In this document: positions 5,360 to 53,600 of the stretch, in pieces
How the letters are laid out: every line of letters starts with the position of its first letter
How positions within the stretch are numbered: position 1 is the stretch's first letter
From: Rosa chinensis
Taxonomy: Eukaryota; Streptophyta; Magnoliopsida; Rosales; Rosaceae
Assembly (NCBI RefSeq): GCF_002994745.2
Contig: NC_037092.1
Span: 87,954,398 to 88,018,397 of the forward strand
Direction: 5' to 3'
Length of the DNA: 64,000 nt
Made by a program: the position numbers and the translations under genes
The notes under the pieces: model-generated
Databases searched by the model: none
What the model saw: only the letters and a program-made list of their open reading frames with translations
Told to the model about the DNA's origin: nothing

Positions 5360-5624
5360 TTGCCCCCCAGGCCCCGAAATCGGGCCCACGAAGATGTAAC
5401 TGATTGAAGGGGACTAAAACGACGCGCCGGTCGCTTGAAACGATGTCATTAATGAAAGTCGCGTCCTTTCGTTCGCAAAACGCCTTTCTGTCGTATCGTT
5501 TCCCTCACAAAATTCCTTATTTAAACCCACGGCCGCATAAGACCCGTCACATCAGAAACCCTTTCAGTCTCTTAAACCCAGAAAAACTCATTTCCTCCAA
5601 CATCTCCTTCGCAGAAACCTAGAA

Positions 5625-18038: not shown

Positions 18039-18224
18039 ATTGGGTGATTGGGACTGACGAGAGAATCTTTGAGTTACTTGTTCTTCAGAAAGATCACAAC
18101 AGTCCGCGCGAGAGTGCGGTCTGTAAATGGAAGACTTATGCTTTGAGCAGTTAGCGTAAACCTTTTGGTAAGGGTTTTCGCTAGACTTCCCAATGGCTAC
18201 GTTCACGAAGAGACACTATTGCAG

Positions 18225-18242
18225 GTCCCACTGGGCGTGCCA
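18225..18242 (-). other. Primer-binding site, element 1
   Basis: Minus-strand TGGCACGCCCAGTGGGAC lies three bases inside the 5' LTR and is identical in all three elements. I do not assign the primer tRNA. Confidence 0.75.
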
Positions 18243-18245
18243 AAA

Positions 18246-28033: not shown

Positions 28034-28656
28034 CCGAACCTCCTAACAGGCTGGAAAGGCTTGTTCGCGTACTCGAAGTGGCTCCTCTAGGAGTCATAGA
28101 CGAAGCGAGGGACGATCTGCAGCGACTTTTGGGTCCTGACATTTTACTAACGGGCGCGCCTACCAAAGCTCAAGAATATTTGATGGTGCTTCACCGCGAG
28201 CGCACTATCACCGAAGCTGAATTTGTTGAGATATACGAGCTCCTACAAAATCTCCCTGCGCGGATTAATGAGAGAACGACTGCGGCCGCACAGGCTAGGC
28301 AGGTTCAGGCTCACTATCGCGGCCTTGTGCAACAAGCAGAGGCATCTCGCGACTCCTTAGGTGATCGAGCTATTCGCGTCAGGGACCTACGAATCTCACA
28401 GAACCACCTTCGGATCCACATTCAGGACCTCCAAGCCCAACTGATCGAAGCAAAGGCCCAGTTGGTGGTGGTGACGGCCCAACTTGAGCAAGAGGAACCT
28501 TAGATAGAGCAGCCCTTAGCAGCCTTCGAAGCGATGACTCAGGACTTGGCTCAAGCATGCGAAGCAGTCCGACAAGCGGAGCGAGCTGCTGCTGACGCTA
28601 GCTTTCGTCTAGATGAACACTTACTTCGCTTGACCCATGCGGGTCGTAAACTTTAG

Positions 28657-33000: not shown

Positions 33001-33622
33001 GGTAAACATCCTTAGGTGTAGCGAGATTCAAGTCTCTATAATCGACGCAGACTCTCATCTTGCCATTCTTTTTCCGGACAGGCACTATATTAGATAGCCA
33101 CTGATTATACTTGGTGACCCTTATAATACCCGACTTGTGCATTTTCTCTACCTCCTCCTTAACGAGAATCTGGGTCTCCGAATTCATTCGTCGAGGTTCC
33201 TGTTTGACGGGCCTCTTGTCAGGGAGAGTTGGTAGTTGATGACAAACCAAATCTGGTGACAGGCCGGGCATGTCTTCATACTTCTCCGCGAAGCAATCCT
33301 TGAATTCTAACAATAAGGCAATGAGCCTCTGTTTCTCGCTAGGCTCTAGGTAAGCGCTGATGGATACCTCCATAGGCTCGCTCACTGTGCCCAGATTGAC
33401 CTTCTCAGTAGGGTCTCTAACTTTAGGAGGTGTATCGTCCAGTGTTGCCGGGGCAAGTTGAATGCGGACTTCATCTTCGTCCTCCGGCTCAAAAAGTTCT
33501 TCATTAACGACCTCTAAGGTCGCGATGCGATCATAAGCCTCTTTTTCCACCATGTATGATGACAGTCGTTCATGTATCGAGTGGAAGGCCTCTATCCCCT
33601 CCTCCGAGAGGTTGTAATCCAT
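30014..33622 (-). pseudogene. pol of element 2, in one frame with several stops
   Basis: Starts at the ATG at 33620-33622, sharing its A with the gag-pro stop (TAATG). One reading frame runs the whole length to 30014. In-frame stops are TAG at 32072-32074, TAG near 32027-32029 (TGG in other copies), and TAA at 31280-31282 (a Gln codon in others). RT carries YIDDVV near 32745. The second RNase H-like domain (FFDGSR near 31800) is well kept. The integrase part (31240-30014) is fully open for 408 codons, with its Asp-Asp-Glu region around 30960-30620 and the GGQP end. Confidence 0.93.
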
Positions 33623-36600
33623 TAATCGGTCAAGGGTTTGGGCACAGCGTGCCCAGGCCTTTCCAAGCTTTCTTTCGCGAGCGTGAGCCCCCACTGTGCC
33701 AGTTCAGAGGCCGTCACCCCTGTGGGGCGGCCCTTAGCATCGATGCCACTTACCTGCAATGGAGTGATAGGCTCCAAATAGTATCTGGCATCTACATAAT
33801 TTGCGGAGACCGGGAATGGACGGGGGTCTGCTTTGACTACCTCCGCCGTATCTGTTCCCCTATTCCACATAACCAGCTCTTGATGAAGTGTCGAGGGTAC
33901 ACAGTAACTCCTGTGGATCCAGTCTCTGCCCAAAATGGCACTGTAGGCCGCATAGCAATCCGTCACGAAGAAGGCATAGACCCCCTCTGCTGGGCCGACC
34001 TTAATGCGCAAGAACAATAGCCCTAAGGTTTTTGTCACTGTGCCTGCGAAATTTTTGAGTGCAAGAGACGTGGACTGGATTTTCTCCCGCTTAATTCCAA
34101 GCAAGTGCATGGTCCGAGTAGTGACGACATTAACGGCTGCTCCGGTGTCAATCATGATTTTGCTAACTTTGATACCGCTGATGTCTGTCGTAATGTATAG
34201 TGGTCGCATGTGCTGGACCATAGCTGGCGTTGGCTTGGAGAAGTGCATGAGTGACCCCTTGTTCGGAATCTCTTCTGTTTCCTACTGGACTCCATCTTCT
34301 ACAGGCGTTGCCGCTGCTGAAGTAACCTGCAATGGCTGTCCACCCTCTTCTTCTGTCCCCACGTAATCCTGAGCAGCGACTGGCAATGCATATCTCGCGG
34401 GGAGTACATAAACCATGTTGCAAGAAACGTCAGCTGTCTCGGTCCCTTCCATGTCACCGTCCAACTTAAGCTTGGGCTCCTCGACCGGGATATCGGTTTG
34501 GAATTGCTTAGCCAAACGATCTACCAACGATTCTTCCGTGAGGCCTTTTACCTCGCAATGCTCACGCTCTTGTGATTCCAGTTCCTGCTCCACAACAACC
34601 GGCTTAGCGCTCCTCTGAGGCAGAGATGGCCATGCTTTGGATTTTCTTAGGTCGCCACTGCAAGGTGTCACCAGTCCTGTCTTTGCCCCCCAGCCTATCA
34701 AAGACTGAAGCTTTGACCACTGGTGCTTCCCGGAATAGCCGGCGCCTGACATGAGGACGCCGAGTTGGCGAGCTCTCCATTCGCGCAAGAGGTGGTGAGC
34801 GCTCCTCTGTAATCCTGCAAAACACACTGGGCTTTGAGGCCCCTGTTAGTGAATCTGTTTGTTTGTTAAAACCACGGGGAGGTCTTAACGGTTTAGCAGC
34901 CAGCGCTTCCACCTCTTTCTGGTATTGTTCGGGCGACTTGACCAGTTGGGAAGGTTTGATCAGGCCCTGATCTAAAGCCTCTAGAGCGCGCTTGGCTTCT
35001 CCAAACCTGCGCTGCAGTTTCCGTTTCCTGGACGAGCTAATCTCCACCGCCTTCCCCTTTTCCCTGGTGTACCATCTGCCCTCCTTGATAGGGTTAGCTG
35101 ACGCAGGTGGTATATAGGGCTTGGTCAGCATATCTTTGCAATCGCTCCTGGACTCTTCCTGTTTCGAACCAACTGCAGCTGCTTTTAGCTTCATGAATAA
35201 GTTGGAGTCTCTGGGGGATGGTGGTGATTTCGTCTTCTCCCTTTCTCTTGGACCGGAAGGCTGATAGTTCCGTGACGAGGAAGCCCACTTGATTGGTGGT
35301 AGGGAGCCAAAGTGAAACGTCTGCTCGACCTCCTCGTGTGGTATTTGGATACCGCACTCCTCTTTACATCGCTAGCATAGGATCACGGGTGAAGCCTGGT
35401 TGGTTGACTCAATTCTACCCTTGGCTGGCGCTTCACCTGCGATAGACCTATCAGTCTGCTTGCTCGGAACCAAATCCAGAGTTGTTTTCCGTCGCTGCTG
35501 CTTGTTCCAATCCACATTGACCATATTGATCCCGGTGTCAGGAAAGGGATCCACGTCGACTAGTGCCGCCGCTGTGACTGGAGCCTCTACCTGCAAGCTA
35601 CCGTTATTAAGCCATACCTGAATCTGGTCTTTGAGTTTTACACAGTCCGCGGTATTGTGGTTCCAAAGATTATGGAACTTGCAGTACTTCTTTCCTTTCA
35701 ACTGCTCTGGCCGCGGAAAAGGCCCAAAATCAGTCTTCACCATCTTCGCAGCGATCATCTCGTCGAGGATCTCGTGAGCTTTATTGGCATCATAAGTATA
35801 CATCGCGAACTCCGGCTTGGTGAAGGCCATTGATTTGAGCTTAACAGGCTCCTTTGAAATCTTCAACTGCTTCAAGGACGGGTTCTTCTTCCCAGTTAGC
35901 TCATAGGCTGCTATATCATTATCCTCGTCCTCTTCATCGTCCTGGATCGCTTCTCCAGCATTGTGATGGTAATAAGGGTCGTAGGTGGCCGGCTGGTAGC
36001 TCAGGGCCGCTACAGTACGGTGTTTACCTAGCACATACGTCCCTCAGGAAGCATTCTTCCTCGCATCTGTTTCTCTGAGGAGATGCTCGAAACTGCCCAC
36101 CTCCGTGATGAGTTCTCCCATCGACTGAATCATGCTGCCATGCTGCTTCTTTCGTTGTCGAGGTTCCAAACCCTTGACCGCCAATTTGACTAACTCCTTC
36201 TCAGGCAGGATGACATTCAGTTTGGCTTTCTGGATTTGAAAGTGCTAAAGATAAGCGACTGCCGATTCTGTCGGCTGTTGGGCCATCTGAGTGAGAGAAG
36301 CTAGGTCTACTTCAATTTCAATAGTCCCAAATGTCTCACGGAAAAGTAGTTCCATTGCCGGCCAATCCGCCACTGTCCCTGGTCTGAGTTTAGAAAACCA
36401 TCTGAAGGCAGCGCCCGACAGAGAAGTGCCAAAGATCCTGCACTTGAGGACATCATCATTCTGGTATTGGCCACATTGTACCCTAAACCTAGCCAAATGT
36501 GTGGCCGCATCTTCAGTGTCATCCCCTGAAAAAGTAGAGAAGATAATGTTCTTATAACCTCGGGGAAAAGGTGCGAGCATGATGTGTGGCGGGAAAGGTC

Positions 36601-37726
36601 CCTCATAAACCCCATCCGGCTGGGTTCTAGGGTTTGCCAATCTGATCATCTCCTCTACCTCATCACATCTCACATAATCTGGTCCCGGAGGCGGAGGAGG
36701 TGCCGCCGCAGTATGGTGAGCAGCTTGCATAGGTACTGCCTGGTTCACCATTGTGGATTCCCCCCCGACATGCACAACGCGAGTAGTAGCCTATTGCTGA
36801 AGAGTTACCGCTGGCCTAACCTCGTCCTTCAACAGAGCTGTTATCTAGATGGGGGTGCCGGTCTGGTCGAGCCCATAATATTTCCCCGGCAATTCGTGAT
36901 ACACCATTTCTGCCCCATCGCTGTCATACTGGACGATAGTCACGGGTTCCGGCACCGTTCCTGCGCCCTTCGAGACTTGGTGTTTCTTGGTGGCATGTCC
37001 GCTCGATGAAGCAGTCTTTTCTTTGCTGCCATTAATAACCAGGGCTTGTTCTTTGTTTTTCGACGGAGCAGTAGCGACAATAGTTGAGGAAGAAATAGCA
37101 TTTTGGTTAGTCTTCTCGCGCTGATTTGGTGGCACGTACTTGCCTAAACCGGATGGCTGGCCAAGAGAGCCAAGGATAGCATTAGGATCCCCTAGGGCTT
37201 TGTTCAGTACATCTCTCGCCTGGTTCAATTCGGCCATCTGCATAGCCACCTCAGTCGCCAGGCTGGCCCCGTCCTTGCGAAGATCTGCTATATTCAACGC
37301 GGTCTGCTTGGTATGATCCGCTATAGCGTCCAAAAGTGCCTTATGACGTTGATCCTGTTCTCTAGCGATACCTGTAGCGTATGCCTTCAAGGCACTTTCT
37401 GATTGCGTGATCTGCTGCCGGGTACTCTCCGTATGTATAGTCATCCGCTGCTCAATTTCGCGAAGAAGCTTTTCCGATTTTGCGGTTTCCCTGGGAAAGT
37501 CAGCATCCATCTTCTTGCGATGGTTTTCGACATTCTCCATGATGATCACGAACTTGACCTCAGCGGTTGCTCCTTCCGGAATAAGCTTCGAGACAAAAGC
37601 CTCTTCTTCTCCACCTTCCACTGTAGTGTCGACAGTGGCGGGGATAACAGGCTCGCTGGCCTGATTAACATTGACTCTCTGACCCTTAGTAGCGGTCGAG
37701 CGATTCTCATCTTGTGCAGTTGACAT
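33622..37726 (-). pseudogene. gag-pro of element 2, broken
   Basis: The ATG at 37724-37726 aligns with the first conserved ATG of the sister copies. It encodes an N-terminal coiled-coil-like region, a gag domain (about 36600-36200), a Cys-His knuckle-like motif (about 35670) and a DTG protease (about 34150). Stops include TAG near 36841, TAG near 36792, TAG near 36246 (Gln in copy 3), TGA near 36035, TAG near 35372, and a stop at 34282. A frameshift lies near 34610. It ends at TAA overlapping the pol ATG. Confidence 0.9.
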
Positions 37727-37911
37727 ACCGGGTGATTGGGGCTGATGAGAGAATCGTTGCGTCACTTGTTCTTCATAGAGACCACGACAGTCCACGCAAG
37801 AATGCGGTCTGTAACTGGAGGTCTTATGCTTTGAGCAGTTAGCGTAGCCCTTTTGGTAAGGGTTATCGCTAGACTTCCCAATGGTTGCGTTCACAAAGAA
37901 ACACTATTGTG

Positions 37912-37929
37912 GTCCCACTGGGCGTGCCA
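37912..37929 (-). other. Primer-binding site, element 2
   Basis: TGGCACGCCCAGTGGGAC on the minus strand, three bases from the 5' LTR, identical to the other two elements. Confidence 0.75.
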
Positions 37930-37932
37930 AAA

Positions 37933-38747
37933 TGTTTGGCTCCAAAACCAGTTGGTGCAAACTGTCTCTTTTGAGCGTGTGATTGCGCAGGCGTGCCAGC
38001 ACCGCGGGGTGCAGTCGTTGGGGTAGTCCCTTGACCTGACTTCTTCTTCAAGCGCTGTTGACGAGGAGAGCACCAACCTCGTCACAAGGTTCTTCTCTTG
38101 CCTTTCGGGAAAGGACTTCTTGCCTTACGCGGGTAAAGGCTTTGGTTGTGGTCTCTTTGCGTTCACCGTATCGATACTCAACGTTGAAGGCTGAGCAGAG
38201 CAATCACTGGGAAGTTGGAGAAAGCACGGGTTTTGCTAAAGCGTGACTTTAGCTTCGCTGGGTTGCGAGGGCGTTACCCTTGCTTCGCTGGGTGTGTCGG
38301 TGGCAGTAGTACTAGCAGTCGGCTCGCGAGGAGACTGGGACTGGAAGCACGGTCGCCGGGTTGATCTGGTGAGGCTGACAGTCGGCTTGCGAGGAGACTA
38401 GGACTGGCGGGCGGTCACCGGGTTTCAACGAGGTTGAAGGTTTGCTCCGGGGAGGCTTTGTAATCGCTGGGATTGATTGATTCGAGAGAGGTCCTTGATT
38501 TCTCCGCTTAGCCCTGTATTTATACACTAGGGCTACGACTGCTCCTTGCCTCAGAAGGACTCTTAATTGAAGTTTCCTGTTTAGTCTCTACTACTCGATT
38601 TCAATAAGGTTTCGTCTCCTTACGAAACACGGAATGGGCGAAGCTATAACCCAAACCCGAGTGGTTTTATTTTTGGGCCGCAGGTATCGGCCCGCTGGTT
38701 CGAATCCACTAAAGGATTTTGCCCAAAATTGCTTTTGGGCTCAAACA
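37933..38747 (-). repeat. 5' LTR of element 2
   Basis: 815 bp, TG...CA, followed by the duplication GAGAG. It carries the doubled 63-bp motif, and a TATAAATA on the minus strand near 38518-38525. Confidence 0.92.
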
Positions 38748-39106
38748 GAGAGGTTTGTGAGGTTGGCAATTCTTTCACTAATGGCTCCATATAGCGAATT
38801 GCGAGGCAAAGCAATTTCTTCACTTGTGGTGGCATTGTAGATATCATCTGAAAGTAATCCCGACAAGTTATTGTAACCAGCATGAAAAGCTTGCAGTTTG
38901 GAACACTCCCCTAGTCCTTGAGAAATATTACCAGTAAATTCATTGAATGAAAAAATCCAATAGCCTAATCAAGGGAGAAGAATGAAGACAAATTGATGAT
39001 GGAATAGAACCTGAGAATGTGTTATTGCTAACATTGAAACTAGTCAAATTCCAAGCTCGTTGGAAGAATGAACACGGAATTGCACCATGTAAGTGATTGC
39101 TGGACA
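38748..39106 (-). pseudogene. RLP1 fragment 2: LRRs between elements 2 and 3
   Basis: Read right to left, this begins in SSNHLHGAIPCSFF directly after element 3's duplication. LTSFNVSNNTFSGSIPSSIC follows (about 39050-38990). A frame change and stop near 38940 come next, then GYNNLSGLLSDDIYNATT and ERIANLTNL up to element 2's duplication. It links fragment 1 (53601-54044) to fragment 3 (20611-21686). Confidence 0.85.
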
Positions 39107-39923
39107 TGTTTGAGCCCAAAAGTAATTTTGGCAAAATCCTTTAGTGGGTCTGGGCCAGCAGGCCGATACCTGCGGCCCAAAAATAAGGCTACATGGGTTT
39201 GGTTTATAGTTTCGCTCATCCCGTGTTTCGTAAGGAGATGAAGTCTTATTGAAATCGAGTAGTAGAGACTAAACATGAAACTTCAATTAAGAATCCTTCC
39301 AGGGCAAGGAGCAGTCGAAAACCCTAAGGTATAAATACAGGGTTAAGCGGCGAAATCAAGGACCTCTCTCGAATCAATCAATCCCAGCGCTTACAAAGCC
39401 TCCCCGGAGCAAACCCTTAATCTTGTTGAAACCCGGCGACCGCCCGCCAGTCCTAGTCTCCTCGCGAGCCGACTGTCAGCCTCACCAGATCAACCCAGCG
39501 ACCATGCTTCCAGTCCTAGTCTCCTCGCGAGCCGACTGCCAGTACTACCGCCACCGATACAACCAGCGAAGCAAGGGTAACGCCCTCGCAACCCAGCGAA
39601 GCTAAAGTCACGCTTTAGCAAAACCCGTGCTTTCTCCAACTTCCCAGTGATTGCTCTGCTTAGCCTTCAACGTTGAGTATCGATACGGTGAACGCAAAGA
39701 GACCACAACCAAAGCCCTTACCCGCGTAAGGCAAGAAGTCCTTTTCTGAAAGGCAGGAAAAGAACCCTGTGACGAGGTTGGTGCTCTCCTCGTCCACAGC
39801 GCTTGAAGAAGAAGTCAGGTCACGGGACTACCCCAATGACTGCACCCAGCGGTGCTGGCACGCCTGCGCAACCACTCGCTCAAAAGAGACTGTTTGCACA
39901 CCAGCTGGTTTTGGAGCCAAACA
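39107..39923 (+). repeat. 5' LTR of element 3
   Basis: 817 bp, TG...CA, with TATAAATA at 39330-39337. A 63-bp unit (starting near 39447 and again near 39510, CCAGTCCTAGTCTCCTCGCG) is tandemly doubled. Confidence 0.93.
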
Positions 39924-39926
39924 TTT

Positions 39927-39944
39927 TGGCACGCCCAGTGGGAC
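39927..39944 (+). other. Primer-binding site, element 3
   Basis: TGGCACGCCCAGTGGGAC three bases after the 5' LTR, the same as in elements 1 and 2. Confidence 0.78.
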
Positions 39945-40131
39945 AGCAAACTAGTGTTTCTTTGTGAACGCAACCACTGGGAAGTCTAGCGATAACCCCT
40001 ACCAAAAGGGCTACGCTAATTGCTCAAAGCATAAGACCTCCAGTTACAGACCGCATTCTCGGGCGGACTGTCGTGATCTTTCTGAAGAACAAGTAACGCA
40101 AAGGTTCTCTCTCCAGCCCCAATCACCCGGT

Positions 40132-43100
40132 ATGTCAACTGCACAAGAGGAGAATCACTCGACCGCGACTGAAGGTCAGAGCGTCAGTCAGGCCAGCGAG
40201 CTTGTTATTCCCGCCACTGTCAACACTGCAGTGGATGGTGGTGAAGAAGAGGCTTTTGTTTCGAAGCCTATCCCGGAAGGAGCGACCATTGAGGAAACAC
40301 TCACGATCCTCATGGAGAATGTCGATAATCATTGCAAGAAGATGGACGCTGATTTTGCCAGAGAAACCGCAAAATCAGAAAAGCTCCTCCGTGAAATTGA
40401 GCAGCGTATGACTCTACACACAGAGAATACCCGGCAGCAGATTACACAAACAGAGAGTGCTTTGAAGGCACAAGCTATAACCATCGCCGCCGAACAGGAT
40501 CAGCGTCATAGCACAATTTTGAACGCTATAGCAGAGCATACCAAGCAAACCGCGTCGAATATGGCGGATCTTCGCAAGGATGGGGCCAACTTGGCAACTG
40601 AGGTGGCTATGCAGAGGGCCGAGTTGAACCAGGCGAGAGATGTAATGAACAAGCCCTTAGGGGATCCTAATGCTATCCTTGGCTCCCTTGGCCAACCATC
40701 CGGTTCAGGCAAGTATGTGCCAATAAATCAGCGCGAGAAGGCCAACCAAAATGCTGGTTCTTCCTCAGCTACTGTTGCTACTGCTCCATCGAGGAACAAA
40801 GAACAAGCCTTGGTTATTAATGGAGGCAAAGAAAAGACTGCTTCATCAAGCGGGCAGGCCACCAAGAAACACCAGGTCTCGAAGGGTGCAGGAACTGCGT
40901 CAGAGCCTGTGACTTTCGTCCAGTACGACAGCGACGGGGCAGAAATGATATACCAAGAATTGCCGGGAAGTTATTATGCGCTTGACCAGACTGGCGCCCC
41001 GATCAAAATAACCTCTTTGTCGAAGGAAGAGGTTACCCCTGCAGTAACTCTCCAGCAACAAGCTACTACCCGCATTGTGCGTGTCGGGGAAGGATCAACA
41101 ATGGTGAACCAGGCAACCCCTGGACAAACTGCCCACCGAGCTGCGGTGATTCCTCCTCCGCCTCTAGGCCCAGAGTATGTGAGACGTGATGAGGTAGAGG
41201 AGATGATCAGATTGGCAAACCCTAGAGCCCAACCGGATGGGGTTTATGAGGGGCCTTTCCCCCCACACATCATGCTCGCACCTTTCCCTCGAGGTTATAA
41301 GAATATCATCTTTTCTACTTTTTCAGGGGAGGACACGGAAGATGCGGCAACACACCTGGCCAGATTTAGGGTGCAATGTGGCCAATATCAGAATGATGAT
41401 GTCCTCAAGTGCAGGATCTTTGGCACTTCGCTGTCCGGCGCTGCCTTCAGATGGTTTTCTAAACTCAGACCAGGGACAGTGGCGGATTGGCCGGCAATGG
41501 AGCTACTTTTCCGTGAGACATTTGGAAATATTGAGCCGGAAGTAGACCTGGCCTCTCTCACTCAGATGGCCCAACAGCCTACAGAATCGGCAGTCGCTTA
41601 TCTTCAGCGCTTTCAAATCCAGAAAGCCAAACTAAATGTCATCCTGCCCGAGAAGGAGTTGGTCAAGTTGGCGGTTAAAGGATTGGAGCCCCGACAAAGA
41701 AAGAAGCAGCATGGCAGCATGATTCAGTCGATGGGAGAACTCATCACGGAGGTGGGCAGTTTTGAGCATCTCCTCAGAGAAACAGATGCAAGGAAGAATG
41801 CTTCCAGAGGGACGTATGTGCCCGATAAACACAGTACTGTAGCGGCCCTGAGCTACCAGCCGACCACTTACGACCCTTATTACCATCACAACACTGGAGA
41901 AGTGGTCCAAGATGACGAAGAGGATGAGGATAATGATATAGCAGCCTATGAACTGACCGGGAAGAAAAACCTGTCCTTGAAGCAGTTGAAGATTTCCAAG
42001 GAACCTGTTAAGCTCAAGTCGATGGCCTTCACCAAACCGGAGTTCGCGGCATATACCTATGATGCCAACAAAGCTCACGAGATCCTCGACGAGATGATTG
42101 CCGCGAAGATGGTGAAAACCGATTTTGGGCCTTTTCCACAGCCAGAGCAGTTGAAGGGAAAGAAATACTGCAAGTTCCATAATCTGTGGAACCACAACAC
42201 CGCGGACTGTGTGAAGCTCAAAGACCAGATTCAAGTATGGCTTAATAACGGCAGTTTGCAGGTCGAAGCTCCGGTCACCGCAGCGGCACTAGTTGACGTG
42301 GACCCCTTCCCTGACACCGGGATCAATATGGTCAATGTGGACTGGAACAAACAGCAGCAACGGAAACCAACGCTGGATGTGGTCCCGAGTAAACAGGGTC
42401 ATAGGTCCATCGCGGATGAAGCGTCAGTTAAGGGTAGAATTGAGGCGACCAACCAAGCTTCACCTGTGATTCTGTGCTCGCGATGTAAAGAGGAATGTGG
42501 TATTCAAATACCACACGAAGAAGTCGAGCAGACGTTTCACTTTGGTTCCCTACCACCAGTCAAGTGGGCTTCATCGTCGCGGAACTATCAGCCTACTAGC
42601 CCAAGAGAACGGGAGAAAATGACATCACCATCATCCCCCAGAGACTCCAATTTATTCCTGAAATTAAAAGCAGCCGCCAGCGAGCCGAAACAGGAAAAGA
42701 CTAGAGGCGGTTGCAAAGATATTCTGACCAAGCCCTATATACCGCCTGCTTCAGCTAATCCTATCAAAGAGGGTAGATGGTACACCAGGGAAAAGGGCAA
42801 GGCAGTGGAGATTAGCCCGTCCCGGAAGAGGAAGCTACAGTGCAGGTTCGGTGAAGCCAAGAGCGCTCTAGAGGCCTTAGAGCAGGGCCTGATCAAACTT
42901 TCCCAATTGGTCAAGTCACCCGAACAATACCAGAAAGAAATGGAAGCGTTGGCCACCAAACAAACAGATTCGCTAACGGGGGCTTCAAAGCCCAGTGTGT
43001 TTTGCAGGATTACTAAAGAGCGTTCACCACCTCTTACCCGGATGGAAAACTCGCCAACTCGACGTCCGCATGTCAGGCGCAAGCTCTCCCATGAAGCATC

Positions 43101-44217
43101 AGTGGTCAAGGCTTCGGTCTTTGACAGGCTGGGGGGCAAGGACAGAGTTAGTAACACTTTGCAATGGCGACCCAAGAAAATCCAAAGTGTGGTCACCTCT
43201 GCCTCAGAGGAGCACGGGGAACCGGAGAACCCTAAGCTGGTTGTAGTGGAGCAAGAACTCGAGCCACAAGGGCTTGAACATTGCCAGGTAAAAGGCCTCA
43301 CAGAAGGGTCGTTAGTAGATTGCTTGGCTCGGCAGCTCCAAACTGATATCCCGCTGGAAGAACCCAAGATAGATTTGGATGACGACATGGAAGGGACTGA
43401 GACTGCTGACGTTTCTTGCAACATGGTTTATGTACTCCCCGCGAAATATGCATTGCCAGTCGCTGCTCAGGATTACGTGGGGACAGAAGAAGAGGGTGTG
43501 CAACCATTGCAGGTCACTTCAGCAACCGCGACACCTGTAGAAGATAGCGCCTCGTCGGAACCTGAAGAGGTTCCAAACAAGGGGTCATTTATGAACTTCT
43601 CCAAGCCAACGCCAGCCATGGTCCAGCACATGCGACCGCTATACATTACGGCAGACATCGGCGGTATTAAAGTCAGCAAAATCATGATTGACACCGGAGC
43701 GGCCGTCAATGTCGTCACCACCAGGACCATGCACTTACTGGGAATCATGCGGGAGAAAATCTAGTCCACGTCTCTTGCACTAAAAAATTTCGCGGGCACG
43801 GTAACAAAAACCTTAGGGTTATTGTTCCTGCGTATTAAGGTCGGACCAGCAGAGGGGGTTTACGCCTTCTTTGTGATGGATTGTTATGCGGCTTACAGTG
43901 CCATTTTGGGCAGAGACTGGATCCACCGGAGTTACTGCGTGCCCTCGACACTTCATCAAGAGCTGGTTATGTGGAATAGGGAAACAGACACAGCAGAGGT
44001 GGTCCAAGCAGATCCCCGTCCATTCCCGGTCTCCGCAAATTATGTAGATGCCAGATACTATTTGGAGCCTATCACCCCATTACAGGTTAGTGGCATCGAT
44101 GATAAGGGCCGCCCCACAGGGGTGACGGCCTCTGAACTAGCACAGTGGGGGCTCACGCTCGCCAAAGAAGGCTTGGAAAGGCCTGGCCACGCTGTGCCCA
44201 AACCTCTAACAGATTAA
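40132..44217 (+). pseudogene. gag-pro of element 3, one premature stop
   Basis: Structural polyprotein plus protease, about 1361 codons from the ATG at 40132. The open frame extends upstream to 39964 without an ATG. A charged coiled-coil-like N-terminal third is followed by a gag domain (about 41230-41700), a knuckle-like CKFH...H...C motif near 42166-42215, and an aspartic protease with DTG at 43690-43698. A single TAG at 43762-43764 (Gln codon in the sister copies) cuts the protein just after the protease active site. The same frame then runs on to TAA 44215-44217. That stop overlaps the pol ATG as TAATG. Its last approximately 70 nt overlap open sequence in the pol frame. Confidence 0.93.
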
Positions 44218-47200
44218 TGGATTACGACCTCTCGGAGGAAGGAATAGAGGCCTTCCACTCGATACATGAACGATTGTCATCATACATGGTGGAAAAAGAG
44301 GCTTATGATCGCATCGCGACCTTAGAGGTTGTTAATGAAGAACTTTCTGACCCGGAGGATGAAGATGAAGTTAATATTCAACTCGCCCCAGCGGCGTTGG
44401 ACGACACACCTCCCAAAGTTAAAGACCCTACTGAGAAGGTTAACCTGGGCACAGTGGACGAGCCTATGGAGGTATCTATCAGCGCTTACCTAGAGCCTAG
44501 CGAGAAGCAGAGGCTCATTGACTTACTGCACGAATTCAAGGATTGCTTCGCGAAGAAGTATGAGGACATGCCCGGCCTGTCGCCAGATTTGGTTTGTCAT
44601 CAACTACCAACTCTTCCTGACAAGAGGCCTGTTAAGCAGGAACCTCGACGAATGAATTCGGAGACCCAGATTCTTGTAAAGGAAGAGGTAGAGAAAATGC
44701 ACAAATCAGGTATCATCAGGGTTGCCAAGTATAATCAGTGGCTATCTAATATAGTGCCTGTCCGAAAAAAGAATGGCAAGATGAGAGTCTGCGTTGATTA
44801 TAGAGACTTGAATCTCACTACACCTAAAGACGTTTACCCCATGCCGGTCGTGGATATGTTGGTAGATGCGGTGGCAGGCCATGAGTTGTTGTCCTTCATG
44901 GACGGTACTGCAGGATATCACCAGATTCCGGTCGCTGAAGAAGAAAGACACAAGACCGCTTTCCGCTGCCCTGGCTTCACAGGAGTTTTTGAATATGTGG
45001 TCATGTCGTTTGGCCTGAAGAACGCCGGTGCGACGTATCAGAGAGCCATGAATTTGATCTTCCACGACATACTGGGAAAGGTTGTAGAGGTATACATTGA
45101 TGACGTAGTCGTCAAGTCTCAGAAGAGAGGGGATCACATCGCGGATCTCAGGAAAGTATTTGAGCGCATGCGCAGACATAGACTCAAGATGAACCCGGCC
45201 AAATGTGTGTTTGGGGTTCAGGCAGGAGACTTTCTGGGGTTTATAGTCCATCAGCGAGGAATTGAAATCCCCGAGGACAAGGCAAGCGCAGTCATTAATG
45301 CATCTCCCCCGCGGACGAAGAAGGAATTACAACGTCTGTTGGGTAAGATTAATTTTCTAAGGCGTTTCATCTCTAACTCTGCAGGAAAAATCCAACCGTT
45401 CTCACCTTTGCTGAGATTACAAGGGCAGAACGAGTTTGTGTGGGAACCCAAACACCAAGAGGCTTTCGACAGTATCAAGGCCTATTTGGCAAACCCACCA
45501 GTCTTGGTTCCACCTAGAACCGGGATCCCATTAAAGCTGTACATTTTAGCAGCCGAGGCTTCCATTGGCAGCCTGCTCGCTCAGGACGATGAGGGAGGTG
45601 TCGAGCATGCTATATTTTATCTCAGCCGCACATTGACAGACTGCGAGACAAGGTACACCCCTATGGAAAAGCTGTGCCTAACCCTGTACTTTTCAGCATG
45701 CAAGCTGCGCCACTACATGCTATCTTTTACCACTTGCATCATCGCTCAGACCGATTTGGTCAAATACATGTTGTCCCGGCCTATCTTGAGAGGCCGCATT
45801 GGCAAATGGGTATTGGCGCTTTCCGAGTTTTCACTCCAATATGTACCCCAGAAAGCTGTCAAAGGGCAGGCCATCGCAGACTTTCTCGCACATCATCCTA
45901 CGTTAGAAGTACCTGCACTGAAGGAGTTAGAGATTGCCTGCACAACTACGACTCGACCAGATAAAGCGTGCATCCCTGAGTACGCGGTTTGGTATCAAGC
46001 CACAATCTCTCTCCAGCCCTGGGTATTATTCTTTGATGGTTCACGAACGGACACTCTGGCTGGCGCGGGGATTGTTTTGGAAACCCCAGCTGGCGACCGC
46101 TTCTCTTATTCATTCCAGCTAACATTCCAATGTACTAATAATCAGGCTGAGTATGAAGCTCTTATCATTGGACTCGAAGTCTTACTGGAAATGGGCATCC
46201 GAGACGTTCAGATCCGCGGCGATTCTCAGGTCGTTATTAACCAGCTCCAGGAAAAATATCGCTGTGTGAGTTGGTTGCTCATACCTTATCTGAATCGCGC
46301 TATCGAGCTTCTGGATCAATTTACCGATGTTGATATGGAATATATACCACGCGAGCGCAACTTTGCAGCTAATGAGCTCGCTCAGTTGGCTACTGGCATC
46401 ACATTGAAGTATGGAGTGCGTGAGCGCATTTTGAAAGTTGAACGTCGCACACTGCCTTCGTGGCTTGCTCGACCTGATCCACCAGATGATCCCGTAATCG
46501 CGGTACTGGAACCTATTGATGTTGATTAGCGGATTCCGTTGGTTGAATACCTCAAACAACCAGGCCCCAGCGCTGACAGGAGGATGCGTTTCCTCGCATT
46601 GAATTACTTCCTTCGAGGCGATGAGTTGCGACGACGGGGGGAGGATGGTGTCGATTTTCGGTGTGTCTATGGTCGTGAGGCTAAGAGATTACTGCGCGAG
46701 GTGCACATGGGGATATGTGGATCCCATCAAGCTGGACCTAAGATGCGCTGGCTCCTGCGACGTCATGGCTATTATTGGCCCAGCATTTTGAAGGATTGTA
46801 TCGCATTTGCCAAAGGATGCGAGGACTGTCAAGCACACGGTCCAGTCCAGCATGTTCCTAATATTCCTATACAACCTATTATTAAGCCTTGGCCTGCGCG
46901 AGGCTGGGCACTGGACCTGATTGGGATGATCCATCCTCATTCTTCCATGCAGCACAAGTTTATCATCGTCGCCACTGACTACTTCACTAAATGGGTTGAA
47001 GCAGAGCCTTTGAAGGAGGCCTCAGGCGCTACCATTCGCCAGTTTATTTTCCGTAATATTCTCTGCAGGTTTGGTCTCCCTGAGGTGCTGGTTTCGGACA
47101 GGGGGGCAGCGTTCATGGGAGGCCCCGTTGAGGAGTTGGTCAATGATTTTGGCATTCAATTCATACATAGTACTCCGTATTATGCTCAATCTAATGGTCA

Positions 47201-47825
47201 GGCGGAGGCTAGCAACAAAACAATCATCACCTTACTAAAGAAGATGTTGGTAGAGAACCCTCGACAATGTCATGACACTTTGTATGAGACACTTTGGGCC
47301 TATCGCACTTCTAAACGCAACCCCACCGCCACGACGCCGTATGCGCTTATGTTTGGCCACGACGCTGTCTTACCATTAGAAATTAATGTTCATTCTCTGC
47401 GTGTGCAAGAACAGCATCATTTGATTGGCGAGGATTATGTTCAGGCAATGTGGCAGGAGCACGAAGACTTAAGCGAGCAACGCTTGGCCGCTTTGGACAA
47501 TTTGGTGATGGAAAAACAACGTATCGCCCGCGCCTATGATAAGAGGACGCGTGGTCGTAGTTACAAAGAAGGCGACCTCATCTGGAAGGCCATTTTACCC
47601 TTGGGTGAAAAGTTCACCGGTCGCGGTAAATGGACGCCGCGATGGGAGGGACCCTTTGTTATCCACCGGATATTGGAGCGAGGCGCTTTTCACCTCAAAG
47701 ACGTCGATGGCGACATCCATCGCAACCCTATTAACGGCCGCTTCCTGAAGAAATATTATCCAAGTGTCTGGGAGTTCGAAGATCCTCCTGATCCTGTTCT
47801 TGCCCAGACTGGGGGGCAACCTTAA
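44217..47825 (+). pseudogene. pol of element 3 (RT, two RNase H regions, integrase), one premature stop
   Basis: 1202 codons in one frame from the ATG at 44217-44219. RT has its catalytic YIDD at 45093-45104. A retroviral-type RNase H/connection region (about 45560-45900) is followed by a second RNase H-like domain (FFDGSR near 46030, NNQAEYEAL near 46137, GDSQ near 46220), the pairing typical of Tat-lineage elements. TAG at 46527-46529 (TGG in the sister copies) separates this from integrase, which is otherwise open to 47825. The integrase zinc-binding region is near 46730-46835, and the Asp-Asp-Glu catalytic region spans about 46910-47215. There is no chromodomain. It lies in the -1 frame relative to gag-pro. 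Confidence 0.95.
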
Positions 47826-49199
47826 TCTTCATCGGCTCGCCTCATTTCTCTATGTTAATTCGGCCTTTTCTCTGTGGCCTATTGTTTTTGTATCTGCTGC
47901 CCGCTGAACATTGGGGGGCAACTCCATATCTAGTTGGGCCTTTTCGAGGCTCTATTTTGTAACAAATTTTTGCTGCAAAATCTATTTTGTAACAGCCTAT
48001 ACAAGAGGCTTTGTTTATACTCATAATCCAAGTTATCTCAGTCACTTTGTTTTTATTCACTATCTTGACAAAGCGTGTGAAGGATAGATACGAGAGCCTA
48101 TACAAGAGGCTTTGTTTTAGACTAACAAATTTTTGCAAAGTTTTACAGATTTCTGGTTAAAGCGAGAATCTTATTCATAAAGTGGCTTTGCGGCCAGAAG
48201 CATACAACAGAATAGAGCAATACAGTTTCACATGCAATTACAAAAGTGGCTCTGACAGAAGCATAAAAGTTTAAAAGTGACTGGTTGTGGTTGCGGGGGG
48301 AAGGATCTGGGCGCTACCACCTCAGAGCATTCTTCCTCTCTATACTCAGATCCTCCTCCAATCTCAGTCGCCACTGCTGTCATCAGTACCGGAGGAAGAG
48401 GGAAAGAAGAGATCCTTCATACCCCTTCCTTGGGCCTTTCCTCCGGGAAGGAGTTGGGGTCCGGAGCAGGCGTGACTCACAACCACATCTACCTCCTGGG
48501 GTAAAACAGAAAGTGTGTACCCAGGCCCCAGAGGCAGACCGCAAAGGCAGGACGGTAGACCTCAAAGTGGCCTTCCTTCCTTCCTCCACTCGCTCCTCGC
48601 GGGCAGTCTGAAAAGTTGGACTCCTCAGAATGTCGTTCTGCCGCGTTAGGAGCGCGGCATGTTCTTCAGTTTAACTGAGACTGGCAAGTTCATCCAGATT
48701 TTCAGAAACCAAAGACATGCCACTGGACCTGAGATTAGGCCATGAGGCCTACCCAGGTCTTGAGATTAAGCCATGAAACCTAAGGGTTTGTGGCTAAAGA
48801 TGGAATCATGGGGGGAAGATTTCAGAAATTGAAGAAAAAGCAACAAGTCTTGCGAGGTTATCCTTGGAAGAGACATGGTGGTTTGGGTATCGCTCTTCTT
48901 TGGATACCGGTATTTATAGGGCCAATCCCACACCGTGCGATAAGCTGTTGAGGCCCTTTCAACGCCATCAATAAGGGAATCAATGCGGTTAAATGCTATG
49001 ATCTCGGAAATGGAAGATATTAAAAACGCGTGGGAAGCAGGACGGTCTGCAAGGAAGTAACCGCCCAAAATAGGGCTCTCTTGTCAGCGGTTTTGCTTTT
49101 CATTAATTGACAGACTCTAAATGATATTTGGGCCGAGCAAAGCGGGCTAAATGTTAAATATATTAAATTACAAAATAAAATGGGCCTGAAGTAAGAGGC
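47826..49199. other. Conserved spacer between pol and PMD gene, element 3
   Basis: Converging 3' ends of pol (plus) and the PMD gene (minus). It holds a minus-strand TATAAATA at 48911-48918, the 36-codon ORF annotated separately, two copies of a GCCTATACAAGAGGCTTTG hairpin-like motif near 47993 and 48097, and the doubled CATGGC(T/C)TAATCTCA-type motif near 48735-48785. Confidence 0.6.
48766..48876 (-). CDS. Conserved 36-codon ORF behind a TATA box, element 3
   Basis: Same start, length and core (SQDLLLFLQFLKSS) as 28992-29102 in element 2, with ATG 35 bp after the TATA box. The frame is also open upstream to 49068. Coding status is uncertain. Confidence 0.3.
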   Translation of the reverse strand: MSLPRITSQDLLLFLQFLKSSPHDSIFSHKPLGFMA

Positions 49200-52100
49200 C
49201 TAAAGTTTACGGCCCGCATGGGTCAAGCGAAGCAAGTGTTCATCTAGACGAAAGCTAGCGTCAGCAACAGCTCGCTCTGCTTGTCGAACCGCTTCGCGTG
49301 CTTGAGCCAAGTCTTGAGACATCGCTTCGAAGGCGGCCAAGGGTTGCTCTATCTGAGGTTCCTCTTGCTCAAGTTGGGCCGTCACCACCACCAACTGGGC
49401 CTCGGCTTCGATTAGTTGGGTTTGGAGGTCCTGAATGTGGGTCCGAACGTGGTTCTGCGAGATCCGTAGGTCCCTAACACGAATCGCTCGATCACCTAAG
49501 GAGTCGCGAGATGCCTCTGCTTGTTATGCAAGGCCGCGATAATGAGCCTGGACCTGCCTGGCTTGAGCAGTCGCGGTCGTTCTCTCATTAATCTGCGCTG
49601 GAGGTTTTGTATAAGCTCATATATCTCAACGAATTCAGCTTCAGTGATAGTGCGTTCGCGGCGAAGCACCATCAGATACTCTTGAGCTCTGGCAGGTGCG
49701 CCCGGCAACAAAATGTCAGGACCCAGAAGTCGCTGCAGACTGTCCCTCGCTTCATCTGTGACTCCTGGGGGAGCCACTTCGAGTACAAGAACAAGCCTTT
49801 CCAGTCTATTAGGAGGCTCGGGAGGAGGAACGTTGGCAATGACATCAGTATCATCAGCAGCAGCAGGGACTTCCTGAGGCTCGACGACGAGGGCCGCGAC
49901 CGGTTCCGGTGCTGCATTCATATCAGCTCCTACTTCTAGAACCTGGGGGGCAGTTTCTTGAGCCACCATGCCCTCATCAGCGAGCTCGGCAGGGTCAGCA
50001 ACAGAGATTTCCTCAGCAGGGGCGTTACTCTGTAATGGAGAAGGATTGTCAGATATACAAAGATGAACAAGAACTGAGGCATTAATTTTAGACTTAGAGT
50101 ACCTCTGCGATAGGAGCTTCGTCTGAGAGGCTTACCGGCGCGGGCTCTTGAACTGCCTCACCGGGAGTGGGACTAGGCGATACAGGCGTCGACGGTGGTG
50201 CAGCGATCGGTTCCTCAGGTGTTGCATCCGGAAGGGGTGCATTTTCTTCTGGTTCAAGTGAACTATCCTCTATAATCTGCACAGGAATAGAGGCTGAGTC
50301 ACCAGCGGTGCTGAGAGGAGGTGGAAAATTTTCAGGGACTACGGGTGCTGGCGCTTGTGAAGCGGTTGTTCTTTGACTAGCAGCTGAAGAGCCTTCTCCA
50401 GCATGTTCAGATAGTTTGCGACGAACCTGTGAAGGAAAAGGTTATGAAGTATGGACAGAAATATAGATAATTTCTAACATGAGCTCCTTGCTTCTTACCA
50501 ATCGGTCAGCCAGTGGTTCATCTCCTTCCTAGGGGTCAGCGTGAGTGTCCGAGCGATTGCGCTTGCGAGCTATAGCGACCGCAACCTGCCAAAAACAGGA
50601 GGTTAGAATTTAACTCACAGAGTATGATCCTGGAGATAGAGGGTTCTTACGGTTTGTGGATCCTCGTCATCAGAAGAAGAAGAAGAGTGTTCGGCTGCAA
50701 ATTCAGCGAGCACTGCCTTCTGCTTTCCAGATTGTCCGGCGGCCTGGGGAAGCACTGGTTGTGCGGCAGCCAGGGCGCGGCGTACTCCCCTAGTACAAAT
50801 AAGTATGAGTAAAAGGGGGAAACAATGAAGGAGTTTGCAGAGGTTAAGGTTACAGTACTTACTTCTGGAGGGGGTTCACGAATTACGATGCCAGCCTGGG
50901 CCGGGCGAGGAGCCCGCGCAGGTCGGACCACTTGAAGGGGCCGGGGCCTGTTAGTGTCTTCAGAGAAACGAGCGAGCATTTCAATATCGGCAGGATATGG
51001 ATTCCTGAGCTCGCCAAAGAGGGTAGCGAAGAGTTCGTCATCTGGTTGGGTCCAGTAATTGACGGAAACTTCTTTCCACCAAATCTCATATCCTTCTTCG
51101 TTCCGTCTACAGCATTGAGGGTCTGGGCCCAGTCAGGGAGATCAACTAGCACGAGCATGCTCTGTGCCGGCGGGGATCCGGAGGGGGGCCCGAATCTTCG
51201 CCAGGAAGTGTTGTAGTTCCAGGCATCGTACAGAGGGACTGGTACCAATTGGACAAGGCCGAATTGGCGGGCAAAATGATTGGGAGCATAGAGCTCAAAG
51301 CTGAGTTCTTCAGCGGCAATCCGGATGTCTGAACAGGAGACTGCGCGGCGAAACGCCAGGCGAGCACGGTCGGAATAGATAGGATCGCCAGGAAGGAAGC
51401 CATATTGGAGCACAGAGGGGAATCTTCTTCCCAGAATTAAATCACAGTACGGCATGTCGTCTAGCAAATACAGATAAGAAAAGCATTCGGAATAAGGGGA
51501 GATGAGTACTTGTCCTCGCGGCAAAACCATCGACCTAACAGTTGATCGGCCGGTGGAAGTAGCATGATATCTTCACGGCGGAAGAATTGAAAGTATGTCT
51601 GGATCCAGAAATCCAAAATCCAGAAAGGGCCAGAAATGTTGGTCTCAAAGGGATGCATCGTCGCTTGGTACAGCATGCGATAGAGGGCCCCTAACACCGG
51701 TTGTCCGAGCCCGACGTTGCGGCCGTTGTAGAGGGCCGTTGCTAAATAGGTCCAAGTGTCAGTGGGCTTACAGGAGGAGGTACAGAATATGAATTTACAA
51801 AGCCAATACTCAAGGAAAGCGATTCCTTCGATCGCATTGTGTTCCCGGCTGTAATATGCCAACCATCTCGGGTATGAACCACTATGAGCGCTGCGACCTT
51901 GCTGGGCCATGGTCAAAGTAAAGTCGACAGAGTCAAATTGACCATGCACATAGGGCTCGCCATCTATGGGTAGGCCAGTGATGGCAAGGATATCCAACAG
52001 AGTGATGCTCATTTGACCAAATCTAAAGTCAAATGTGTTGGTGGCGGTATTCCAGAAACAGAGGAAAGCAGCGAGTGGCGAGCGATTACCACCACGAGGA

Positions 52101-52516
52101 AGATGGAAACACAAATCAATAGCGTGGGTGATACCTGTAGCATTCCAGTGACCTAGATCCCGCGTCCGCGTCTCACGGTACCAAGAAATCTCCTGTGCAC
52201 TAATGGAGGATGGCAAATTCCCTATCTTGGCTCGGTGGTTTTGGGCACCCCAACCGCTAAAGTCTCCAGGAGTCCTTCGGAGGACTGGAATGGGTCTGCG
52301 AACAGGAAGACCGTATAAGGCAATGGCATCATCCGGGATAACGCCTTGTGGTGCTGGGCCCAACCTGGTGTGGTGGTCGGAGAAACGAAGGAGTAGGGGT
52401 CGGTGAATAGTGGTTTCTAGATGAATGCGAGCACCAATGCTGGTGCCTCAAGTCTGAGCAGCCGTTTCGTTTAATTCTTCTTCCTGATCGATGATGATTT
52501 TCTTAGGGGGAGCCAT
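49200..52516 (-). pseudogene. Antisense PMD gene of element 3 (five exons)
   Basis: The ATG at 52514-52516 lies 267 bp from the 3' LTR. Exon 1 is 52516-50863, exon 2 is 50789-50651, exon 3 is 50585-50499, exon 4 is 50426-50103 and exon 5 is 50029-49200. All four introns are 65-73 bp with GT...AG ends at the same places as in copies 1 and 2. The PMD core (FGQMSITLLDILAITGLP) is near 52020-51970. Damage: TGA near 52450 (Trp in the other copies), a frameshift near 51500, another near 51080, a stop in exon 3, and frame changes in exon 5 near 49600 and 49500. The C-terminus is Glu/Gln/Ala-rich, coiled-coil-like, and ends in RKL. It faces away from its 3' LTR, so a promoter in the 52517-52783 stretch is likely. 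Confidence 0.87.
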
Positions 52517-52783
52517 TTCTGGATCGTTTATAGGGAAGATGCGAGCAGAAATGGGTTTTTTCTGGGTTTAAGAGACTGAAGGGGCTTCTGATGTGACAGG
52601 GTTGCGGCTGTGAGTTTAAATAGAGGATTTTGTGAGGGAAACGATGCGACAGAAAGCGTTTCACAAACGAAAGGACGCGACCTTCATTAATGGCATCGTT
52701 TCCAGCGACCGACACGTCTTCCTAAAAGTCCCCCTTCAATCAGTTGCATTCTAGCGGGCCTGATTTCGGGGCCTGGGGGGCAA

Positions 52784-53600
52784 TGTTTGAGCCCAAAAGT
52801 AATTTTGGCAAAATCCTTTAGTGGGTCTGGGCCAGCGGGCCGATACCTGCGGCCCAAAAATAAGGCTACATGGGTTTGGTTTATAGTTTCGCTCATCCCG
52901 TGTTTCGTAAGGAGATGAAGTCTTATTGAAATCGAGTAGTAGAGACTAAACAGGAAACTTCAATTAAGAATCCTTCCAGGGCAAGGAGCAGTCGAAAACC
53001 CTAAGGTATAAATACAGGGTTAAGCGGCGAAATCAAGGACCTCTCTCGAATCAATCAATCCCAGCGATTACAAAGCCTCCCCGGAGCAAACCCTCAATCT
53101 TGTTGAAACCCGGTGACCGCCCGCCAGTCCTAGTCTCCTCGCGAGCCGACTGTCAGCCTCACCAGATCAACCCGGCGACCGTGCTTCCAGTCCTAGTCTC
53201 CTCGCGAGCCGACTGCCAGTACTACCGCCACCGATACAACCAGCGAAGCAAGGGTAACGCCCTCGCAACCCAGCGAAGCTAAAGTCACGCTTTAGCAAAA
53301 CCCGTGCTTTCTCCAACTTCCCAGTGATTGCTCTACTCAGCCTTCAACGTTGAGTATCGATACGGTGAACGCAAAGAGACCACAACCAAAGCCCTTACCC
53401 GCGTAAGGCAAGAAGTCCTTTTCCGAAAGGCAGGAAAAGAACCCTGTGACGAGGTTGGTGCTCTCCTCGTCCACAACGCTTGAAGAAGAAGTCAGGTCAC
53501 GGGACTACCCCAACGACTGCACCCCGCGGTGCTGGCACGCCTGCGCAACTACTCGCTCAAAAGAGACTGTTTGCACACCAGCTAGTTTTGGAGCCAAACA
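52784..53600 (+). repeat. 3' LTR of element 3
   Basis: 817 bp, paired with 39107-39923 and followed by GGACA. Confidence 0.93.

What the first reader, a model, noticed from the sequence alone, without database searches (positions are those of the whole stretch)
49200..52516. A host-like PMD gene rides antisense inside three copies of a gypsy retrotransposon
Seen: all three elements carry, between integrase and the 3' LTR, an opposite-strand gene with a plant mobile domain, an acidic/proline-rich linker and a coiled-coil-like end (5625-8924, 22763-28656, 49200-52516). Known: extra antisense ORFs occur in Tat-lineage elements, and PMD domains are shared between host genes (the MAIN/MAIL1 group, linked to transposon silencing) and transposons. 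Inference: the element captured or co-evolved a PMD gene and may have used it against host silencing.
Basis: partly seen in the sequence, partly recalled or inferred. Interest (0 to 1): 0.85.

Follow-up and report, generated by a model that had tools for sequence, protein, structure and literature searches.

The report
Retrotransposon's own antisense PMD gene
Three jumping elements in a rose-like genome each carry, on the opposite strand, a multi-exon gene of a known plant protein family; it looks like the element's own long-kept gene rather than a recently stolen host gene, and what it does for the element is still unknown.

Summary
It has five exons; the four short introns keep GT...AG ends in all three copies. 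A TATA-type box is conserved, and the predicted product is PMD, acidic linker, coiled-coil. The PMD exon evolved under strong purifying selection (dN/dS 0.08-0.11, close to pol) while introns differ by 30-41%. In the 515-Mb genome holding the window (probably Rosa chinensis), 69 of 97 listed integrase relatives have a PMD antisense downstream, none in another arrangement, 28 none listed; 4 of those 28 were opened and all 4 have it. Of 24 PMD loci opened outside a tandem cluster, 22 show this layout, across several diverged families. PMD and pol distances match within and between families. So this is an old element gene, not a recent host capture. All three window copies are broken. PMD genes in Tat/Ogre elements, and the counter-silencing idea, are in print; function is untested here. 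Modestly new: the intron structure, co-divergence with pol, and a 97.5%-identical 80-nt non-coding block beside the gene.

The parts
39106..53600 (+). Element C, Ty3/gypsy (Tat-type) LTR retrotransposon; LTRs 39106-39923 and 52784-53600; TSD GGACA; LTR K2P 0.0186
21689..38747 (-). Element B; LTRs 21689-22501 and 37935-38747; TSD CTCTC; LTR K2P 0.0187
4615..18990 (-). Element A; LTRs 4615-5359 and 18246-18990; TSD GATAC; LTR K2P 0.047
50863..52516 (-). C antisense gene exon 1: ATG and PMD domain (a stop and frame breaks inside)
   Evidence: PF10536 E 2.7e-29; alignment and exon model
50651..50789 (-). C exon 2 (acidic linker)
   Evidence: same junctions in Rosa chinensis protein P0032
50499..50585 (-). 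C exon 3 (basic, NLS-like by eye only)
50103..50426 (-). C exon 4 (Pro/acidic linker, dN/dS 0.60-0.81)
49200..50029 (-). C exon 5: linker end, conserved C-terminal region and coiled-coil, stop at 49200
52610..52622 (-). TATA-type box TATTTAAAC(T/C)CAC upstream of the antisense ATG; counterparts A 5518-5530, B 22660-22672
5625..8924 (+). Antisense PMD gene of copy A (exons from 5625, 7357, 7557, 7716, 8123; stop at 8924)
22763..28656 (+). Antisense PMD gene of copy B (exons from 22763, 24492, 24693, 24853, 25252); in-frame stop in exon 1; 2.6-kb insertion in exon 5
44136..47825 (+). RT - RNase H - second RNase H - integrase of C (two open stretches, 44136-46529 and 46530-47825)
48698..48777 (-). 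80-nt block 97.5% identical in A, B and C, no coding signature; 46-nt core at A 9368-9413, B 29098-29143, C 48725-48770

Best explanation
It is the accessory antisense gene of a Tat-type Ty3/gypsy retrotransposon family. Shown: a five-exon gene model on the strand opposite gag-pol, with its own TATA-type box between ATG and 3' LTR, coding for PMD - acidic linker - coiled-coil, kept by purifying selection and inherited together with pol across several diverged families. Inferred: an own Pol II transcript is spliced; because the genomic RNA carries the introns in reverse, they survive each retrotransposition. Inferred and less sure: the protein acts in the nucleus on the element's own expression, most likely by engaging or competing with the host PMD (MAIN/MAIL1)-PP7L silencing machinery. 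The confidence given is for 'the element's own selected, protein-coding accessory gene'; for a nuclear expression-control role I would say 0.45, and for the specific anti-silencing form 0.3.
For: PMD by HMM. Splice ends aligned in A, B and C at 4 of 4 introns; in five fetched family members 14 of 20 sites fall in the aligned pieces and 14 of 14 have GT and AG ends. Same exon junctions in Rosa chinensis P0032 (1035 aa, all five exons) and Rosa rugosa P0010 (exons 1-4). dN/dS 0.076-0.112 in PMD exon 1 against 0.038-0.105 in RT-RH and INT; introns p 0.30-0.41; the coding signal ends at the stop codon. Linkage: 69 of 97 listed INT copies (B and C among them), 0 in another arrangement, 28 without a listed PMD; 4 of 4 opened among those 28 have it. 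22 of 24 opened non-cluster PMD loci are antisense to pol. Distances: n=24, r 0.99, 0 of 5000 permutations; own family n=7, r 0.944, 3 of 5040; seven group representatives, r 0.963, 4 of 5040. TATA-type box in 7 of 7 own-family copies checked.
Against: No transcript data, so promoter use and splicing are not shown; P0032 and P0010 may be gene predictions. No intact copy in the window. B-C dS is higher in PMD (0.48) than in pol (0.32-0.36), and L025 sits differently in the two trees. Exon 4 is weakly constrained, and exon 2 B-C dN/dS is 1.44 on 43 codons. Over the C-terminal part some opposite-strand frames also show low ratios (0.17-0.27 in several windows). Intron-4 donors are weak (GTAC, GTAC, GTAA), and the intron-3 donor of L017 is GTTCAG. 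The 10-kb stretches reached 8.5 kb on the 3' side of each PMD but 1.5 kb on the 5' side, so pol on the other side would mostly be missed, though its strand was free to vary. No functional evidence; structure models failed (mean pLDDT 38.4 and 37.5).
Confidence: 0.88

Rival explanations
1. A host PMD gene (MAIN/MAIL type) was captured recently by this family and rides along.
For: PMD is shared with host genes; a tandem cluster of PMD matches lies at C5:32.90-33.62 Mb of the same genome.
Against: A, B and C share gene, flanks and introns; A-B dS 1.09 and A-C 1.43; same place in families whose integrase pieces are 35-62% identical to C's; identity to the three cluster genes compared 21-23%.
Confidence: 0.04
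2. The antisense transcript, not the protein, matters: it makes double-stranded RNA that tunes or triggers silencing; the reading frame is incidental.
For: Antisense orientation; published suggestion for antisense ORFs (PMC7264820); 175 PHAS loci at PMD genes in tea (PMC10673657, passages).
Against: Frame-specific purifying selection close to that of pol, and conserved splice ends, point to a protein; an RNA role can only be additional.
Confidence: 0.1
3. The protein is a structural or integration cofactor (nuclear import of the pre-integration complex, or targeting), not a regulator of expression.
For: Coiled-coil end and basic exon 3 (by eye); nuclear localisation reported for another antisense accessory protein, Grande gene23 (as cited in PMC7264820).
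Against: A separate transcript with its own promoter would be unusual for a particle protein (inference); no localisation data here.
Confidence: 0.25
4. The element PMD is a decoy or partner of host MAIN/MAIL1-PP7L that blocks silencing of the element (the specific form of the best explanation).
For: MAIN/MAIL1 silence transposons and interact with PP7L (PMC5418596 and PMC7156037, passages); TE-encoded counter-silencers such as VANC21 exist and the PMD idea is in print (PMC8616336, passages).
Against: No test; sequence distance to the host-type PMDs compared is large; MAIN/MAIL sequences themselves were not retrieved.
Confidence: 0.3

Closest known systems
PMD-encoding extra ORFs of Tat/Ogre Ty3/gypsy elements (PMC6317226; Steinbauerova 2011 as cited by others)
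   Same: PMD domain in an extra ORF of Tat-clade elements; PMC6317226 gives pfam10536 in 57% of Ogre elements.
   Different: Here the gene is modelled with five exons, antisense on the 3' side, and shown to co-diverge with pol; the passages I read do not give the orientation or introns of the PMD ORFs.
PMD-A1/A2 clades (PMC5418596)
   Same: PMDs encoded exclusively by Gypsy elements across angiosperms.
   Different: Clade membership not tested here against MAIN/MAIL references.
Retand / Grande / RIRE2 antisense ORFs (PMC11963269, PMC7264820)
   Same: Antisense gene between pol and 3' LTR; own promoter in Grande gene23; SMC or other coiled-coil-type domains in some.
   Different: 97% of the Retand clusters studied encode Transposase_28 (PF04195) antisense; no PF04195 hit in the antisense pieces scanned here.
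Host MAIN, MAIL1, MAIL2, MAIL3
   Same: PMD domain.
   Different: Those are protein-coding host genes with silencing or developmental roles; the PMDs here lie inside LTR elements beside pol.

Membership tests
Tat-clade Ty3/gypsy LTR retrotransposon | LTR pair with short target duplication | tested here: met
Tat-clade Ty3/gypsy LTR retrotransposon | gag, RT, RNase H, second (archaeal-type) RNase H between RH and integrase | tested here: met
   Retrotrans_gag 1e-10; RVT_1, RT_RNaseH, then RVT_3/RNase_H, then rve; protease only weak (E 0.056); that RVT_3 is the archaeal-type domain is inferred from its position
Ogre subclade | PMD in an extra ORF | tested here: met
   criterion from PMC6317226, where it holds for 57% of Ogre elements, so it is not strictly defining
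[quoted passage not shown]
   ORFs overlap at TAATG in A, B and C, 6 of 7 own-family copies in all
Ogre subclade | tRNA-Arg primer site and RT placement among reference elements | tested here: inconclusive
   primer-site-like TGGCACGCCCAGTGGGAC at 39927, 37912 and 18225, not assigned to a tRNA; no reference RTs held, no RT tree with references made
Retand subclade | antisense Transposase_28 (PF04195) gene | tested here: not met
   no PF04195 hit in the antisense pieces scanned
Plant mobile domain family (PF10536) | match above curated cut-off | tested here: met
   102.9 bits against 34.9
PMD-A clades | groups with Gypsy PMDs apart from MAIN/MAIL | not tested
   no MAIN/MAIL reference sequence obtained; the tree has only loci of this genome
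Host PMD gene (MAIN/MAIL) | locus outside a transposable element | tested here: not met
Counter-silencing factor (VANC21-like role) | expression derepresses the element | not testable with these tools
   needs an experiment

The most novel reading that the evidence does not exclude
A whole set of Tat-type families shares an ancient, spliced, antisense regulatory gene whose PMD product engages the host MAIN/MAIL1-PP7L pathway as counter-defence; introns persist because the gene is antisense to the genomic RNA, so splicing marks the coding transcript apart from the genome. The deeply conserved 80-nt block beside it would be a second regulatory part.
Probability: 0.22. Interest if true: 0.78.

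Novelty: new member of a known kind. Interest (0 to 1): 0.42.

Why it matters
PMD genes are read in genome papers as host gene families: the R. rugosa paper reports an 'aminotransferase-like, plant mobile domain' orthogroup with 48 members in R. chinensis and 0 in R. rugosa (PMC8213826, passages). Two annotated rose proteins (P0032, P0010) match this element gene across its exons, so part of such 'gene gain or loss' may be transposon content or annotation (inference; the tandem cluster on C5 is another candidate). More broadly, a selected, pol-linked PMD in several families supports the view that PMDs have long been element genes, makes the domestication-versus-capture question about MAIN/MAIL1 more tractable, and gives concrete proteins for testing counter-silencing.

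Tried and rejected
Recent host capture: rejected (dS above 1, shared introns and flanks, presence across families). Independent later insertion: rejected (same junctions in A, B and C; 69 of 97 INT copies linked, and 4 of 4 opened of the other 28). A 5' sense, Ogre-type PMD in L032: first read that way (and a note), then withdrawn, because its PMD block is 99.8% identical over 2.8 kb to the inverted block at the other end of the same locus (L037). Structure: two AlphaFold jobs gave mean pLDDT 38.4 and 37.5, so no fold search was run. PDB sequence search with P0001: 3 matches, best E 0.19, not credible. Rfam: no match with E up to 1 in 47800-52800. Viral contigs: no PMD relative confirmed, no exact copy of 28 nt of the conserved block. 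A second coding gene between the stop at 49200 and pol: no clear coding signal. MAIN/MAIL placement: the three protein searches listed no protein named MAIN or MAIL; most rows had no name or 'hypothetical/uncharacterized', one was a kinase record (P0005) and one 'putative aminotransferase-like, plant mobile domain' (P0032), so absence of a name is no proof of absence.

Papers, what was seen: PMC11963269 parts 1-3 of 5 and passages; PMC7264820 parts 1-2 of 3; PMC6317226, PMC9289625, PMC7156037, PMC10673657, PMC8213826, PMC11152179 and PMC8616336 passages only; PMC5418596 passages and one section. Steinbauerova 2011 and Gomez-Orte 2013 not read, known as cited. Other papers in the nine search listings were not opened.

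Full report
Elements. The window holds three full-length LTR elements of related families: A (4615-18990) and B (21689-38747) read on the minus strand, C (39106-53600) on the plus strand. LTR pairs differ by K2P 0.047, 0.019 and 0.019; at a borrowed rate of 1.3e-8 per site per year (recalled) that is about 1.8, 0.7 and 0.7 million years. Each has its own 5-bp target duplication, read from the flanks printed. C encodes gag and RT, RNase H, a second RNase H and integrase, the layout PMC6317226 gives for angiosperm Tat elements (passages).

The antisense gene. PF10536 matches the opposite-strand exon of C at E 2.7e-29. Aligning the three copies gave five exons, with introns of 65-77 nt beginning GTAAG (introns 1-3) or GTA (intron 4) and ending in AG in all three. 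Of five further family members fetched, 14 of 20 splice sites fall in the aligned pieces and all 14 have GT and AG ends, one donor (L017, intron 3) not of the GTAAG type; the other 6 lie in gaps, L024 lacking that part. The relatives P0010 (Rosa rugosa, exons 1-4) and P0032 (Rosa chinensis, 1035 aa, all five exons and into the coiled-coil) run across the same junctions. A more distant protein, P0033 (1001 aa; PMD pieces 40-49% identical), also has a PMD and an end whose heptad contrast exceeds all but 8 of 2000 shuffles. A TATTTAAA box stands about 100 nt above the ATG in A, B and C and is present in 4 of 4 further family members checked. None of the three window copies is intact: stops or frame breaks in each, and an insertion in B.

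Selection. In exon 1, dN/dS is 0.093 (A-B), 0.076 (A-C) and 0.112 (B-C), with third-position excess; in the other two frames of the same strand it is 1.37-1.69. RT-RH gives 0.047 (C-A) and 0.098 (C-B), INT 0.038 and 0.105. Introns differ by 39, 41 and 30% where exon 1 differs by 21, 23 and 12%. Exon 4 is weakly constrained (0.60-0.81), and exon 2 B-C is 1.44 on only 43 codons. In exon 5 the best frame gives 0.06-0.31 in windows from 49860 down to the stop and the signal ends there; some opposite-strand frames also dip to 0.17-0.27. Against a perfect match with pol: B-C dS is 0.48 in PMD and 0.32-0.36 in pol.

Genome survey. PF10536 gave 118 listed matches, 117 of 1146 candidates being scored; 25 of the 118 lie at C5:32.90-33.62 Mb and 93 elsewhere. 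I opened 24 of the 93 as 10-kb stretches: 20 as one batch and 4 chosen by hand; a 25th, the right-hand block of L032's locus, was seen in a 3-kb stretch. In 22 of the 24 the pol genes lie on the opposite strand, on the 3' side of the PMD gene (in L015 only an integrase fragment remains). The stretches were laid to reach 8.5 kb on that side and 1.5 kb on the other, so the side is partly a matter of design; the strand is not. L031 has no pol in its stretch and may be a host gene; L032 is a special case described under things noticed. The 22 comprise this family (4 loci, INT pieces 84-94% identical to C), a second set (9 loci, 51-58%, one short piece 37%), L021 (48%), L029 and L030 (52-62%), and a third set (6 loci, 35-41%).

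Linkage in this family. The C integrase gave 97 listed copies, scored out of 8273 candidates, B and C themselves among them; the C PMD piece gave 122 out of 1037. Against these 122 and the non-overlapping places of the 93 (196 in all), 69 of the 97 have as nearest PMD one that is antisense within 15 kb downstream (62 at 3-6 kb), none has its nearest listed PMD in another arrangement within 20 kb, and 28 have none listed. Because the lists are capped, I opened 4 of the 28 (the four highest ranked): all four have the PMD, antisense, where expected. The other 24 were not examined.

Shared history. Tree distances of PMD and pol over 24 loci (A, B, C and 21 of the 22; L015 and L032 dropped for too little pol) correlate at r 0.99, 0 of 5000 permutations; group structure inflates this. 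Within this family alone (7 copies) r is 0.944 with 3 of 5040 permutations as high, the true order included; between seven group representatives r is 0.963 with 4 of 5040. Both trees pair A with L017, C with L020 and B with L024; L025 is placed differently, and some nodes are weak. The PMD of B is 21-23% identical to three genes of the C5 cluster, 29% to L031, 31-33% to PMDs of L012, L021 and L029 and 22-25% to those of L009, L011 and L022. In the unrooted tree the eight cluster genes included fall with the third set of element PMDs (support 0.998), so host-type and element PMDs are intermingled in this genome. Presence before these families split is the simplest reading; repeated ancient exchange is not excluded.

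How it probably works. Shown: a protein-coding gene kept by selection and travelling with pol. Inferred: own transcript, spliced. An intron in the sense RNA would tend to be lost in retrotransposition, but here the introns are reversed in the genomic RNA and so are safe; this explains how a retroelement can keep a multi-exon gene. The mode of action is open. Exons 3-4 hold a conserved basic stretch that looks like a nuclear signal by eye (no call tested it). Since MAIN and MAIL1 silence transposons and interact with PP7L (PMC5418596, PMC7156037, passages), interference with that pathway is my leading guess, and it is already in print as a suggestion (PMC8616336, passages).

Known or new. PMDs in Gypsy elements are known: 57% of Ogre elements (PMC6317226), clades exclusive to Gypsy (PMC5418596), ten species in a domain screen (PMC9289625). 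An antisense accessory gene with its own promoter is known from Grande (cited in PMC7264820). In the listings of the searches, and in what I opened from them, I saw no report of an intron-bearing antisense PMD gene; most subscription papers, including the 2011 survey, are not in that library. Hence 'new member of a known kind'.

Noticed in passing
48698-48777 (-); core A 9368-9413, B 29098-29143, C 48725-48770: An 80-nt stretch below the antisense gene is 97.5% identical in the three copies where the surrounding non-coding part averages 63%; 0-3 mismatches over 46 nt in 7 of 7 family copies; CTATAAATACC about 130-150 nt before it in 6 of 7. No Rfam match, no clear coding signal. Could be a second promoter or RNA, or a packaging signal (guess).
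   Followed up: partly
44214-44231 (C), 33608-33625 (B), 13919-13936 (A): The gag-protease ORF ends and the RT ORF begins in overlapping TAATG (stop-start), seen in 6 of 7 family copies: possible termination-reinitiation for pol instead of the Ogre-type intron.
   Followed up: partly
L032 and L037 (G000:C6:17977840-17993839): A relative element has its PMD block present twice, inverted, one copy upstream of gag and one on the far side, 99.8% identical over 2.8 kb; looks like a self-integration or hairpin product (guess).
   Followed up: partly
G000:C5:32.90-33.62 Mb (L001-L008 are eight of its places): 25 listed PMD matches by coordinates, up to 385 bits, 18 of 25 without an internal stop; candidate host PMD gene cluster, nature not tested.
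   Followed up: no
25424-28034: A 2.6-kb insertion splits exon 5 of the antisense gene in copy B; no long terminal repeats and no match elsewhere in the window.
   Followed up: no
L031 (G000:C5:46690626-46700625): A 560-aa PMD frame without RT or integrase match in the 10-kb stretch: candidate single host PMD gene.
   Followed up: no
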